DNA of 5,775 nt from JAFGIT01 sp016929465 [NCBI: Candidatus Coatesbacteria bacterium] (GTDB lineage Bacteria > B130-G9): positions 1 through 5,775 of the forward strand of contig JAFGIT010000371.1 in assembly GCA_016929465.1 (NCBI GenBank), given 5' to 3'. The notes below the pieces were generated by a model. It did not search any database. It was not told where the DNA came from and saw only the letters and a list, made by a program, of their open reading frames with translations. This document shows positions 1,091 through 4,394 of the stretch, in pieces (within the stretch, counting starts at the first letter, position 1; each line of letters starts with the position of its first letter). The translations under genes and the position numbers were made by a program.

Positions 1091-2560
1091 ATGAGGAGAA
1101 TACTCACTCAACATCTCGAGAAGAGAATGGTCAAGCGCCTGGGCAAGAAGATAATGACGGCCCTGGCAGACGGCTCTGATGAAAAAATCATCCAGATGAC
1201 CGAGTATTGGGAGCGACTTGCCGTGGTCGAGGACCACAAGCGGGCGGCAATTGGACTTCGGCGAATAATCGAAAGAGGCCATCCGATTGGCAAATGGCTG
1301 AAGCGGCTCTCCTCCCAGGTGAACGATGCCTGCAGAACCGGCTTCGTCGTCAATGTCTTTGCGAACTCCATGTTCGTCGGGGAGGAGAAAAGGCTCGCAT
1401 TTCGGGACAGGGAGGGCTTTCGGCCGCCCGACTTGATCGTCCTGAGCGTCACATCCAAGTGCAACCTCAACTGCCGAGGCTGCTGGGCTAAGCAGTTCAG
1501 AGGCTATCCCGATCTATCGTTCGATGCCATCGACAAAGTGATACGCGAGGCGAAGGACGAATTCGGCGTGCACTTCTTCACGATTACCGGTGGTGAGCCG
1601 TTCATGCGCCCCGAGATGCTGGATATATACGCCAAGCATCGAGATTGCTGGTTCCAGATCTACACTAACGGCCTCTGCATCAACGCACGGACCGTGAAGC
1701 GGCTCGCGAAGCTTGGCAATACCGGGCCGATGATTAGCGTAGAGGGCCTGGAGAGAGAGACCGATGCGAGAAGGGGCACCGGGACCTTCAGTAAGCTGGA
1801 GAAGGTTATGAAAACGCTGAGGGATGCCGGAGTCGTGGTTGGATTCTCCGCGACGGCTACTCGCCATAACGTGGAGGTTGTCTCGAGTCCCGAGTTCATC
1901 GATACGATGATCGACTGGGGAGCGCTGATTGGTTGGTATTTCCAGTACATTCCGGTCGGCGACAGACCAGATCCGGAGCTTATGCTGACGCCAGAGCAGC
2001 GGGACTTTCTGCGTCGAAGGCTCTACACAGAGCGGGCCACAAAGCCGATCTTCCTCGCGGACTTCTGGAACGATGGGACCGCTGTCGATGGCTGTATGGC
2101 TGGTGGAAAGCGCTACCTGCACATCAACAGCAGGGGCGACATCGAGCCGTGCGTATTCTGCCACTTCGCGGTGGACAACATCTACGATAAGACGGTGACA
2201 GAGGCCCTAAGGAGCCCGTTCTTCACAGCTATCCGAGAGCGCATCCCTTACGATGGCAATCTACTCCGATGTTGCATGTTGATCGATCGCCCGGAGGTCT
2301 TCAGAGAGCACTATGCGAACTTCAAACCAAGAGCGACACACGCCGGGGCAGAATCGCTCGTGACCGAGCTTGCCGATGCCCTCGACAGAAATAGAGAGGG
2401 CGTGTCCGCGATACTCGATAAGGCATGGAGAGCAGGCGACTGGCAGCACATCCTCACCGGTGAGATAGAGGCGGAGAGGGTCAAGGCTGTGGCCAAGGAC
2501 AGGGCGATTCACCCTGCGAGAGACGTAGGCACTGATGGCGTATCAGCGGCATTCCAATAA
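1091..2560 (+). CDS. Radical SAM protein with SPASM/twitch-like C-terminal region
   Basis: This 489-residue enzyme is predicted to cleave S-adenosylmethionine reductively at a [4Fe-4S] cluster. The cluster motif CNLNCRGC gives Cys124, Cys128 and Cys131, and it is followed by the SAM-contacting GGEP motif at 167-170. The core spans about residues 115-320. A C-terminal region has Cys335, then RGDIEPC with Cys354, Cys357, and Cys394-Cys395 before a DRPE motif. This layout suggests an auxiliary iron-sulfur cluster, as in SPASM or twitch enzymes that modify peptides or small molecules. The first ~115 residues are basic and largely helical, with no motif I can name. The last ~70 residues are also helical. 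The start at ATG 1091 is supported by AGAGAGGA at 1078-1085. The TetR gene lies 84 bases upstream and probably controls it. No precursor peptide or partner enzyme is seen, so the substrate is unknown. The fold call is firm; the function is open. Confidence 0.92.
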   Translation: MRRILTQHLEKRMVKRLGKKIMTALADGSDEKIIQMTEYWERLAVVEDHKRAAIGLRRIIERGHPIGKWLKRLSSQVNDACRTGFVVNVFANSMFVGEEKRLAFRDREGFRPPDLIVLSVTSKCNLNCRGCWAKQFRGYPDLSFDAIDKVIREAKDEFGVHFFTITGGEPFMRPEMLDIYAKHRDCWFQIYTNGLCINARTVKRLAKLGNTGPMISVEGLERETDARRGTGTFSKLEKVMKTLRDAGVVVGFSATATRHNVEVVSSPEFIDTMIDWGALIGWYFQYIPVGDRPDPELMLTPEQRDFLRRRLYTERATKPIFLADFWNDGTAVDGCMAGGKRYLHINSRGDIEPCVFCHFAVDNIYDKTVTEALRSPFFTAIRERIPYDGNLLRCCMLIDRPEVFREHYANFKPRATHAGAESLVTELADALDRNREGVSAILDKAWRAGDWQHILTGEIEAERVKAVAKDRAIHPARDVGTDGVSAAFQ

Positions 2561-2628
2561 GATCGGATTCTCCTCGGTGTCGGGGCGGGCTCTCCGAAGG
2601 ATGGTCATAGATCGTTATGAAGGTGTTT

Positions 2629-2710
2629 TGTAGGGTCAGGCATTGTGTCTGCCCGCTTTGTGATATTGAACTGCGTCCTGCAAAGGGCGGAGACAAGCCC
2701 CGCCCCTACA
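2629..2710. repeat. 82-bp MITE-like palindromic repeat
   Basis: Two imperfect complementary arms, 2629-2660 and 2681-2710, enclose a 20-base loop. The outer ends are TGTAGGG at the left and CCCCTACA at the right; the inner ends are CTTTG and CAAAG. Between them TTGTGTCTGCCC matches the reverse complement of GGGCGGAGACAA well. Transcribed, it would fold into a long GC-rich hairpin. The terminal sequence TGTAGGGGCGG resembles, from memory, interspersed palindromic repeats present in many copies in several environmental bacterial genomes. No clear target-site duplication flanks it, and there is no U-tract to make it an ordinary terminator. It could equally be a REP-like element or an old non-autonomous transposon relic. 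Confidence 0.7.
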
Positions 2711-2777
2711 CTACCTAATCACCTTTCTGCAGCCTCATCACGTAAGGCTCATGTCATTCTCGGCCCGCTGATTCGAT

Positions 2778-2807
2778 TTTACTGATTCACCATCATTCGG
2801 TGATAAT
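2778..2807 (+). promoter_or_regulatory. Candidate distal promoter with inverted repeat in spacer
   Basis: TTTACT (2778-2783, four of six matches) and GATAAT (2802-2807, five of six) are 18 bases apart. Between them, running two bases into the -10, sits TCACC-N7-GGTGA (2787-2803), a perfect five-base inverted repeat that could bind a dimeric regulator. The transcript would carry a leader of roughly 110 bases before the channel gene. The inverted repeat is short enough to occur by chance. Confidence 0.3.
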
Positions 2808-2851
2808 ATTCATCCGAAATATGAAGCAGGATTGCCATCGCCACTTTATAC

Positions 2852-2879
2852 TTGACCGTACATTCCGCCCGGTTAGACT
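2852..2879 (+). promoter_or_regulatory. Candidate proximal promoter of channel gene
   Basis: TTGACC (2852-2857, five of six -35 matches) is followed after 16 bases by TAGACT (2874-2879, four of six -10 matches). The expected start near 2886 would give a leader of about 40 bases that contains the AAAGGG ribosome-binding site. A TATACT hexamer at 2847-2852 is a competing -10 but lacks a good -35. The elements are weak, and the choice between this and the upstream candidate is not settled. Confidence 0.27.
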
Positions 2880-2927
2880 CTGACGCATATTTACACTTGG
2901 AACTCTCACTCTAAAGGGTCATACAAT

Positions 2928-4394
2928 ATGCCGAAGCAAGACGGTCAAAGTGGTTTCATCCGATTCTTCTATCAGGGCAAGATGGACGCCAACCTGGGCG
3001 TCTGCGGCCTTCTCGGCCTTGCCTTGACAGCGATATTCTATTACCTGTTCCCGATCCCCCTCCTTGGCGTGGACAATTATGTCTATAAGCTCTTCGCGGA
3101 GCGAGGCTGGGTGCCCTACGGCATAACTTTTCTTTTCTTCTGGGGTGCTTCGATACTCCTTGCCAAATACATCGGGATGAGGATGGAGCGGAAATACTTG
3201 CTGGTCGATCCGATTGGCAAGGTTCGCAAGGAGACTTATGGCCCTGAATCTGCACGTCAGATGATCTCCGACCTCTCAGAGCTCTGGGAGGCAACACGCG
3301 CAACCATATTGCCCAACAGGATCACTCGAATGCTAAGCCAATTCGCGTCCACCTCAGAGCCCGAATCGATGCAGGGCGTCATGCGCGAGGAGAGCGAGAT
3401 CGACGAGGCGCAGCTTGCTTCCTCGTATGTGATGGCGAAAGTCTTCGTGTGGGCGATTCCTATCCTCGGCTTTATTGGGACAGTTATCGGTATCGTGCAG
3501 GCGGTTGCCGGGTTCTCGAACTTCGTCTCGCAGTCGGTTGCAGATATCGCACAGATCAAATCCGGAATCGGGCTCGTTACCGGTGGCCTATCGGTCGCAT
3601 TCGAGACCACGCTGCTCGCGCTTGTCGTCAGCTTGGTGATGATGATCCCGATGTCGGCCCTTCAGAAAACTGAGGAGAATCTCCTGTCGGCATTCGACAG
3701 GTATTGCATCGACAAGGTCATCTCGAATGCCATCAAGAGGCGGATCGAGACGCCCACGCCCGAGTCGGCAATCCTCGCGAAGGTCATCGAGATCTCGATG
3801 AGAAATCAGCTCGACATCCTGGAGCAGTTCAAGGTGAACTTCATGTCGATGCTCAGCGGAGAGAGCGAGAAGTTTTCGGCGACCGTTTCGGAATTCACCG
3901 GGAGCCAGAAGAAGAGCCAGATGGAGTTCGCGAGGCTCGCAGAATCGCTCTCAGGTAGGTTCAACGAGCTGAGGACGATGTCGAAGGAGATGACTGAGAC
4001 GGCAACCGCCGCGGCGACAACCGCCAGCGAGAAGATATCGGAGGCCTACAAGGCAAATGTCGAGGCGCTTTCAAAGGAGCGCGAAGCCGCCCAGGCTCAG
4101 ATATCGTCACTCATCCAGACCATGCAGAAGGTCGCAACCGACGGAGCAACAGCTATCGTCTCCCTTAAGTCGGGCATCGAGGCCAAGGTGGGCGCTTTCG
4201 TCACGGCGGTCGAGGAGCAGAAGAAGGCGACAGAGCTATTGAACGCGACCAACAAGAACGTCGAAATGCTAACCAGCACCAAGCAGCTCATAGGCACTCT
4301 CGAGCAGATCAGGCAGCAGCTCGCGGACCTCAAACCCGCGGTCGATAACCTGTCGAAGCCGCGCACGATCCGCCTGGTTGATGAGATGAAGTAG
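2928..4394 (+). CDS. MotA/TolQ/ExbB-type proton channel protein with long helical tail
   Basis: This is a 488-residue inner-membrane protein. Hydrophobic segments lie at about 23-43, 62-80, 172-195 and 219-241. The last two carry the MotA/TolQ/ExbB signature: IPILGFIGTVIGIVQAVAGF (177-196) and GGLSVAFETTLLALVVSL (219-236). Thr185 and Thr227/Thr228 sit where channel-lining threonines occur in TolQ and ExbB. A cytoplasmic insertion (about 81-170) separates the two hairpins, as in MotA. Residues about 285-470 are rich in Ala, Glu, Lys, Gln and Ser with no helix breakers and should form a long helical or coiled-coil rod; the protein ends KPRTIRLVDEMK. Family members form pentamers that use ion flow to drive a MotB, ExbD or TolR partner. 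The long tail recalls ZorA of Zorya phage defence, but no partner or ZorC/ZorD is present here. The start is supported by AAAGGG (2913-2918). A hairpin follows directly, so it appears monocistronic. Confidence 0.88.
   Translation: MPKQDGQSGFIRFFYQGKMDANLGVCGLLGLALTAIFYYLFPIPLLGVDNYVYKLFAERGWVPYGITFLFFWGASILLAKYIGMRMERKYLLVDPIGKVRKETYGPESARQMISDLSELWEATRATILPNRITRMLSQFASTSEPESMQGVMREESEIDEAQLASSYVMAKVFVWAIPILGFIGTVIGIVQAVAGFSNFVSQSVADIAQIKSGIGLVTGGLSVAFETTLLALVVSLVMMIPMSALQKTEENLLSAFDRYCIDKVISNAIKRRIETPTPESAILAKVIEISMRNQLDILEQFKVNFMSMLSGESEKFSATVSEFTGSQKKSQMEFARLAESLSGRFNELRTMSKEMTETATAAATTASEKISEAYKANVEALSKEREAAQAQISSLIQTMQKVATDGATAIVSLKSGIEAKVGAFVTAVEEQKKATELLNATNKNVEMLTSTKQLIGTLEQIRQQLADLKPAVDNLSKPRTIRLVDEMK

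What the first reader, a model, noticed from the sequence alone, without database searches (positions are those of the whole stretch)
2928..4394. Orphan long-tailed MotA/ExbB-like channel without a MotB/ExbD/ZorB partner
The protein carries a clear channel signature (177-196 and 219-236), a MotA-like four-helix layout, and a cytoplasmic tail of about 185 helical residues. Such tails are unusual in ExbB and TolQ but are the hallmark of ZorA in Zorya phage defence, where the tail transmits the motor's signal. Yet the upstream 367 bases are non-coding, and the downstream gene is a convergent propeller protein, so no ion-channel partner is adjacent. It could be a solo stress or defence sensor, a motor stator paired in trans, or a new family of tailed channels.
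Basis: partly seen in the sequence, partly recalled or inferred. Interest (0 to 1): 0.6.

Follow-up and report, generated by a model that had tools for sequence, protein, structure and literature searches.

The report
Scattered three-part bacterial membrane motor
The apparently partnerless channel protein looks like the ring subunit of a widespread, unstudied three-part membrane motor whose two other parts are, in this group of bacteria, encoded elsewhere in the genome.

Summary
The gene is real: 488 aa, MotA/TolQ/ExbB-type core (Pfam E 2e-11) plus a predicted tail of about 190 helical residues; no partner gene lies beside it. But it is not an orphan. Homologues in Planctomycetota, Verrucomicrobiota, Myxococcota and Cyanobacteria are mostly followed by two predicted single-helix partner genes, here called B1 and B2 (66 of 78 loci; 34 of 40 further cyanobacterial loci). 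In all four genomes of the window's family (Coatesbacteria-like), profiles made without that family find a B1-B2 pair at another locus. Five planctomycete genomes whose A-B1 locus lacks B2 carry B2 on another contig. B2 has the membrane aspartate expected to carry protons in 63 of 63 aligned rows; B1 has Ser or Ala there in 68 of 80. Best reading: a proton-driven ExbB/TolQ-like ring around a B1/B2 axle of which, in most lineages, only one strand can carry a proton. A Zorya or defence role is not supported. Precedents in print: AglRQS, and a tolQ-like gene with two different tolR-like genes in the PVC group. New variant of a known kind; function unproven.

The parts
2928..4394 (+). A subunit: tailed MotA/TolQ/ExbB-type ring protein, 488 aa
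   Evidence: ORF; PF01618 44 bits; full-length homologues in the three other genomes of the family
2994..3047 (+). predicted membrane helix 1 (residues 23-40)
   Evidence: hydropathy peak; AlphaFold helix
3111..3206 (+). predicted helix 2 (residues 62-93), membrane part at its start
   Evidence: AlphaFold helix; below the hydropathy cut-off used
3429..3533 (+). predicted helix 3 (residues 168-202) with the signature WAIPILGFIGTVIGI, T185 included
3546..3746 (+). predicted helix 4 (residues 207-273) with invariant G220 L221 F225 T227 T228 L229
3759..4352 (+). cytoplasmic helical tail (helices 278-350 and 357-475)
   Evidence: AlphaFold (pLDDT mostly 70-79, dips near residues 350 and 440); purifying selection
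4356..4379 (+). C-terminal stretch KPRTIRLV (residues 477-484), shared with cyanobacterial homologues and L077
   Evidence: alignment A1; motif scan
2561..2927 (+). 367-base intergenic region upstream of the A gene
   Evidence: no + strand ORF of 60 aa or more

Best explanation
The protein is the A (ring) subunit of a three-component ion-driven membrane motor, A-B1-B2. Shown here: A belongs with A proteins whose genes are usually followed by B1 and B2; in the Coatesbacteria-like family a B1-B2 pair is encoded at another locus, followed by a HEAT-repeat, lipoprotein-like gene in the three genomes whose contig reaches that far. Inferred: five A subunits form a TolQ/ExbB-like ring in the inner membrane; one B1 and one B2 helix sit in its lumen; protons pass along the ring threonines (T185, T227/T228) and the B2 aspartate (Asp19 in G000); ring and axle turn against each other; the periplasmic helices and C-terminal domains of B1/B2 carry force to the envelope (here perhaps to the HEAT protein), while the A tails form a cytoplasmic bundle that anchors the ring or couples it to a cytoplasmic partner. 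In most lineages B1 lacks the aspartate, so the axle would hold a single proton site. The cellular job is unknown; an envelope force task like that of Tol, Ton or Agl is the most likely.
For: Synteny, in loci chosen by A similarity only: 66 of 78 have A-B1-B2, 8 A-B1, 4 neither, and those 4 have at most 187 bases left on the contig; 34 of 40 further cyanobacterial loci A-B1-B2, 5 A-B1, 1 A only. Partners in trans: whole-genome searches with two-row cyanobacterial profiles hit the pair in 4 of 4 family genomes. Profiles trained on 75 B1 and 66 B2 rows without that family, run on 981 ORFs of fetched loci (canonical ExbD loci of these genomes included), score the four B1 at 104-109 bits and the full-length B2 of G000 and G003 at 93 bits (but 85 and 71 with the B1 profile); the split B2 of G002 scores 72, the contig-cut B2 of G001 32 as B2 and 54 as B1; no other ORF is better than E 2. 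Five planctomycete genomes with A-B1 but no nearby B2 have a full-length B2 on another contig, E 2.4e-101 or better. Among 98 genomes, A at E below 1e-30 is in 5, all with B2 at E below 1e-10. Tree: window A groups with the A family against five other A genes of its own genome, support 99/97. Fold: TolQ/ExbB Z 12.0-14.3 over 203-223 residues. Asp in B2 63 of 63 aligned rows; Ser/Ala in B1 68 of 80.
Against: No complex was modelled and nothing was tested in cells. B1/B2 profiles show no detectable homology to 13 canonical ExbD of these genomes (hhalign probability under 2%; an unrelated control, the A tail, reaches 5.5% against B2); 2 of 38 B1 rows touch Pfam ExbD at E 0.01. The B2 model matches no solved structure significantly (best E 0.059; best Z 5.3 to an unrelated enzyme). 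12 of 80 B1 rows and by eye 2 of 39 cyanobacterial ones have Asp, so the asymmetry is not universal. Two further A genes of the same genome lack an obvious adjacent B (L025, L026) and could use B1/B2. Among the 98 genomes G081 has B2 (1.9e-11) without A, and G097 an A-like hit (2.4e-13) without B2; weaker hits (E up to 1e-3) are scattered: 30 of 98 for A, 25 of 98 for B2. The tree's 50-row side also holds L030 and L031, which lack recognisable B1/B2, and the tool warns of long branches. In G003 the distance between A and B1-B2 is unresolved.
Confidence: 0.72

Rival explanations
1. The A protein forms a ring with a B2 homodimer (classical 5:2), and B1 is a separate anchor or regulator outside the pore.
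For: B2 keeps the aspartate in every aligned row; five planctomycete genomes code B2 apart from A-B1.
Against: B1 and B2 are homologous over 261 columns (hhalign 99.6%) and B1 keeps its predicted membrane helix; B1 is found downstream of A in 74 of 78 loci and 39 of 40.
Confidence: 0.2
2. The A protein is a Zorya-like phage-defence sensor-motor.
For: Long helical tail; weak PADLOC ZorA hits (up to 31.6 bits for the Anabaena homologue); 2 cyanobacterial copies stand after a type III-B CRISPR and CARF-HEPN operon.
Against: For the window protein the best hit, 18 bits, lies on the tail; no OmpA domain listed for B1/B2; none of 40 further cyanobacterial stretches has the tested type III-B/CARF genes, 5 of them cut within 1.5 kb upstream; in other phyla the recurrent neighbours that I recognise look like housekeeping or lineage-specific genes (names recalled). 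Defence genes were not scanned systematically.
Confidence: 0.05
3. The A protein works with canonical ExbD or MotB subunits of the same genome in trans.
For: G000 holds three canonical ExbD genes and, by eye, MotB-like genes next to a MotA-like gene (L024).
Against: The three canonical ExbD genes lie beside other A genes (L023, L027); the A family's usual partners are B1/B2.
Confidence: 0.06
4. The A protein is a true solo channel or a decaying remnant without partner.
For: No adjacent partner in G000, G001 and G002.
Against: Purifying selection in core and tail; B1-B2 present in 4 of 4 family genomes.
Confidence: 0.03

Closest known systems
AglRQS motor of Myxococcus xanthus (PMC9389320, passages seen)
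   Same: One A subunit and two different B subunits; [quoted passage not shown]
   Different: The review gives both AglQ and AglS the conserved aspartate; here B1 mostly lacks it. Here A has a long tail and B1/B2 mostly long helical linkers. AglRQS sequences themselves were not compared.
[quoted passage not shown]
   Same: One A plus two different B genes in Planctomycetota and Verrucomicrobiota.
   Different: A crude vWA (MIDAS) motif scan found none in 548 neighbours of the A-B1-B2 loci; the section mentions neither an A tail nor an Asp-less partner. Whether the two sets overlap was not decided.
TolQ-TolR / ExbB-ExbD
   Same: A core fold (Z 12.0-14.3); aspartate in the B2 helix; ring threonine positions (match recalled).
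   Different: Two distinct B subunits, long A tail, in-trans coding; B profiles do not match ExbD.
ZorA-ZorB of Zorya (PMC11890865, passages seen)
   Same: Long helical cytoplasmic tail; related core fold (Z 9.1-10.9).
   Different: Two B subunits without a listed OmpA domain; no conserved defence context found.

Membership tests
MotA/TolQ/ExbB superfamily | PF01618 above gathering score | tested here: met
   44 bits versus 22.9
MotA/TolQ/ExbB superfamily | Core fold of TolQ/ExbB | tested here: met
   VIA Z 14.3, rmsd 3.4, 207 residues to TolQ 8vlw, first 18 rows all TolQ or ExbB; the tool asks caution below about 13 for helical models
A-B1-B2 family (named here) | A sequence groups with A proteins whose genes precede B1-B2 | tested here: met
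   50-row side of a branch with support 99/97; long-branch warning, and that side also holds L030 and L031
A-B1-B2 family (named here) | B1 and B2 present in the same genome | tested here: met
   4 of 4 family genomes; B2 is cut by a contig end in G001 and split over two frames in G002
A-B1-B2 family (named here) | B1-B2 directly downstream of A | tested here: not met
Canonical ExbB/TolQ with ExbD/TolR | Adjacent PF02472 partner | tested here: not met
   none in the window; B1/B2 do not match canonical ExbD
Zorya (ZorA) | Long helical cytoplasmic tail | tested here: met
Zorya (ZorA) | Partner ZorB with OmpA-type peptidoglycan-binding domain | tested here: not met
   no OmpA-type family listed for B1/B2 in Pfam scans (35 B2 and 38 B1 rows with the first 25 families shown); by profile only
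Zorya (ZorA) | ZorC/ZorD or ZorE genes nearby | not tested
   neighbour ORFs were listed but not scanned with PADLOC
AglRQS | One A with two B, both B with Asp | tested here: not met
   two B yes; the family's B1 has Ala in 3 and Ser in 1 of 4 rows
Flagellar MotA | MotA equivalog model | tested here: not met
   PRK09109 16.1 bits versus 237

The most novel reading that the evidence does not exclude
A widespread class of rotary ion motors with an obligately heterodimeric axle in which only one strand (B2) has the proton-carrying aspartate, so that each ring turns by an asymmetric, single-site cycle, unlike the two-site 5:2 motors described so far.
Probability: 0.35. Interest if true: 0.75.

Novelty: new variant of a known kind. 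Interest (0 to 1): 0.5.

Why it matters
It turns an 'orphan channel' into part of a defined, widespread motor family on which my library searches listed no paper. Because one B partner usually lacks the proton-binding residue, the family makes an open question of the field directly testable: whether motors with two B genes use heterodimers, and whether one proton site is enough for rotation. The split gene order also shows that gene proximity, used in PMC12505986 to assign B subunits (section 5), would miss such pairs.

Tried and rejected
Zorya or defence reading: PADLOC scans; the CRISPR-adjacent cyanobacterial copies followed into 40 further cyanobacterial stretches of 9.6-19.9 kb, none with the tested type III-B/CARF genes; 5 of the 40 are cut within 1.5 kb upstream of A. 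Recurrent fourth partner: in cyanobacteria no neighbour cluster in more than 4 of 40 loci; in other phyla the listed clusters are mostly bound to one lineage, three span two or three of the larger phyla, the largest (19 loci, two phyla) at varying positions. vWA force transducer: crude MIDAS motif scan, 0 of 548 neighbours. B2 fold by Foldseek and VIA: nothing significant; no family is excluded by that. Solved-structure profile searches: with B1/B2 the 60 listed rows of each gave, as far as I can tell, coiled-coil and other helical proteins, no ExbD/TolR; with A, helical hits on the tail and a zinc-ribbon hit. Close relatives by single sequence in genome contigs: none; viral contigs: two MotA-like hits at 22-26% identity; phages: none. 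Print: searches of the open library listed no paper on this A-B1-B2 family as such; abstracts and listings were judged by title for most. Seen in part: PMC12505986 (outline, abstract, passages, sections 5 and 14), PMC9389320, PMC11890865 (passages), PMC12204202 (passages, section 8). Subscription papers are not held.

Rows dropped or sampled: one search covered 91 loci; the counts use the 78 non-Coatesbacteria loci (80 kept of at least 558). The first B1/B2 profiles were trained partly on these same loci; those hold no Coatesbacteria row and no ORF of 450 aa or more. The tree used 43 of 78 loci less L132 (no motif), plus four family genomes, two plasmid copies, five other A genes of G000, L030 and L031, 55 rows. 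A4/A7, A5/A8 and A6 hold hand-picked rows (54/52, 35/33, 38). The canonical ExbD set holds 13 of 15 loci. In one search, 9 of 72 B2 rows did not fit the motif pattern; 8 of them show the Asp in the printed letters and L160 is split. In one search, 2 of 39 cyanobacterial B1 rows did not fit and have Asp by eye. The profiles were trained with four cyanobacterial loci among others. Of the 43 cyanobacterial genomes with a hit (195 searched), 40 loci were fetched; one of the other three is the genome of L130.

Full report
What is in the window. The window is the whole 5775-base contig G000:C102 of a 3.19 Mb, 423-contig assembly. The gene at 2928-4394 encodes 488 aa. Pfam MotA_ExbB scores 44 bits. 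The predicted structure has a four-helix core and 192 residues of tail helix. Core and tail are both under purifying selection, the tail less strongly. The other window genes are a TetR-type regulator, a radical SAM/SPASM protein and a propeller-like ORF. No partner protein is found in the window.

Homologues in the family. Full-length homologues exist in the three other genomes of the family at 58-74% identity. By the ORF lists their neighbours differ: a phosphate-transport operon ending in PhoU in G003, an SGNH-like gene and methionyl-tRNA formyltransferase in G001, radical SAM and lytic transglycosylase-like genes in G002 (these names are my reading of the sequences, not tool output). In G001 and G003 a same-strand gene ends about 120-160 bases upstream of A, so A need not be monocistronic there; no partner-like gene adjoins it.

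Distant homologues carry two partners. Two plasmid copies, in Anabaena cylindrica and Microcystis, are followed by a 153-aa and a 231-236-aa protein with one predicted membrane helix. A scan of one genome for each of 84,980 species with the A alignment gave at least 558 relatives, of which the best 80 were kept, mostly Planctomycetota, Verrucomicrobiota and Myxococcota. Profiles of the partners, B1 and B2, show A-B1-B2 in 66 of the 78 loci outside the family, A-B1 in 8 and neither in 4; those 4 have at most 187 bases of contig left. Three of the 8 are also short of contig (230-1116 bases left). The other five are planctomycete (two named Gimesia), with 5 kb or more of room; each genome has a full-length B2 on another contig, E 2.4e-101 or better, the weaker hit of the same search falling on the A-B1 contig. 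In the cyanobacterial order of L130, 43 of 195 genomes have A; of 40 loci fetched, 34 show A-B1-B2, 5 A-B1 and 1 A only.

The partners of the window's protein. In G000 the B1-B2 pair lies on contig C137 at 16.6-18.2 kb (minus strand), followed by an 823-aa protein with HEAT repeats (Pfam E 1.1e-52) and a lipoprotein-like start; the same order is seen in G002 and G003, and in G001 the contig ends inside B2, whose last part is probably at the start of C73. The lipoprotein reading rests on the N-terminal sequence, not on a signal-peptide tool. The pair was first found in whole-genome searches with two-row cyanobacterial profiles. Profiles were then retrained on 75 B1 and 66 B2 rows without this family and run on 981 ORFs of fetched loci, including the window, the A loci and the canonical ExbD loci. 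The four B1 score 104-109 bits. The full-length B2 of G000 and G003 score 93 bits each, against 85 and 71 with the B1 profile. The split B2 of G002 scores 72 bits. The contig-cut B2 of G001 scores 54 bits as B1 and 32 as B2, so that fragment is not classed by score. Nothing else is better than E 2. Minimum distances between A and B1-B2 from contig lengths: about 12 kb in G001, 10 kb in G002, 3.6 kb with other genes between in G000; undetermined, at least 0.95 kb, in G003 (simple subtraction).

Co-occurrence and tree. Among 98 genomes, A at E below 1e-30 occurs in five (G000-G003, G093) and B2 at E below 1e-10 in the same five plus G081. Between these and noise, G097 has an A-like hit at 2.4e-13 without B2; at the looser E 1e-3, 30 of 98 genomes have an A hit and 25 of 98 a B2 hit. 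In a 55-row tree the window's A groups with the A-B1-B2 family and not with the five other A genes of its own genome (support 99/97); that side also holds two short A proteins, L030 and L031, without recognised B1/B2, and the tool warns of long branches.

Anatomy and mechanism. The A core resembles TolQ and ExbB most (Z 12.0-14.3), then ZorA and the flagellar stators. T185 and T227/T228 are invariant; that they match the ring threonines of ExbB/TolQ is recalled. Tail lengths in the family vary widely (median 163 residues, 33-702, in 67 measured homologues; 219 in the window's protein by the same rule), so the long tail is common but not universal. B1 and B2 are homologous to each other over 261 columns (hhalign 99.6%), but neither matches 13 canonical ExbD of these genomes (under 2%), so they are a distinct partner family; PMC12505986 (section 5) notes that ExbD and TolR typically fell below detection in its B-subunit searches. 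At the column of the membrane aspartate, B2 has Asp in 63 of 63 aligned rows, and B1 has Ser in 65, Ala in 3 and Asp in 12 of 80; in the 40 further cyanobacterial loci B2 has Asp in 34 of 34, and B1 Ser in 37 of 39 and by eye Asp in 2. From this I infer a pentameric ring around a B1/B2 heterodimer with, in most lineages, one proton site. Stoichiometry, rotation and function are inferred, not shown.

Relation to known systems. Passages of PMC9389320 describe AglR with AglQ and AglS, both with the aspartate, and state that hetero- versus homodimer is unknown. [quoted passage not shown] this may overlap with the family here, though a crude motif scan found no vWA neighbour (0 of 548). Passages of PMC11890865 say that Zorya needs the ZorA extension and the ZorB peptidoglycan-binding domain; no OmpA-type domain is listed for B1/B2. 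So the arrangement of one A with two B has precedents in print; the mostly Asp-less B1, the tailed A and the split coding are what is added here.

Verdict. Observation confirmed, interpretation partly supported: not an orphan, but most likely a split three-part motor.

Noticed in passing
L028:1-9356 and L130:1-9356: In two Nostocaceae the A-B1-B2 module starts 78 and 127 bases after a type III-B CRISPR operon that ends in a CARF-HEPN (Csx1/Csm6) gene (89% identical between the two). None of 40 other cyanobacterial stretches shows these genes, 5 of them cut within 1.5 kb upstream.
   Followed up: yes
L019:12879-13063 and 14900-15083: In G001 a 185-bp direct repeat (97% identical) holds about 95 bases upstream plus the first 30 codons of the A gene; an SGNH-like gene lies between the copies, suggesting a recent insertion or duplication.
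   Followed up: partly
L160:7409-8241: In G002 the B2 gene is split: the membrane part and the periplasmic part are in different reading frames, real or an assembly error.
   Followed up: partly
L157:6121-8592, L159:1950-4406, L160:4909-7380: A HEAT-repeat, lipoprotein-like protein of 818-823 aa follows B1-B2 in three genomes of the family; a candidate force receiver.
   Followed up: partly
alignment A7, N-terminal columns: The A consensus has an N-terminal CPxC...CPxC zinc-ribbon-like stretch, from planctomycete and other homologues; the profile touches PDB 7zok, 'Adventurous gliding motility protein X' (E 0.004). The window's protein lacks it.
   Followed up: no
window 1091-2560: Radical SAM/SPASM protein of 489 aa whose best NCBIfam hit is far below its cut-off (NirJ2 70 bits versus 500), next to a TetR-type regulator (338-1006): a possible peptide or cofactor maturase.
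   Followed up: no
L023 (G000:C86): The same genome has another A gene followed by two different ExbD genes, both with Asp at the start of the membrane helix (AglRQS-like layout).
   Followed up: partly
L025 and L026 (G000:C170, C163): Two further A genes of this genome also lack an obvious adjacent ExbD; L026 is followed by a TonB-like ORF (by eye).
   Followed up: no
L030:3060-9533: A Rhizobium megaplasmid has a short A gene after ORFs that look like a PP2C phosphatase and an FHA protein, with a single-helix B-like ORF after it and a kinase-like ORF upstream on the other strand (by eye).
   Followed up: no
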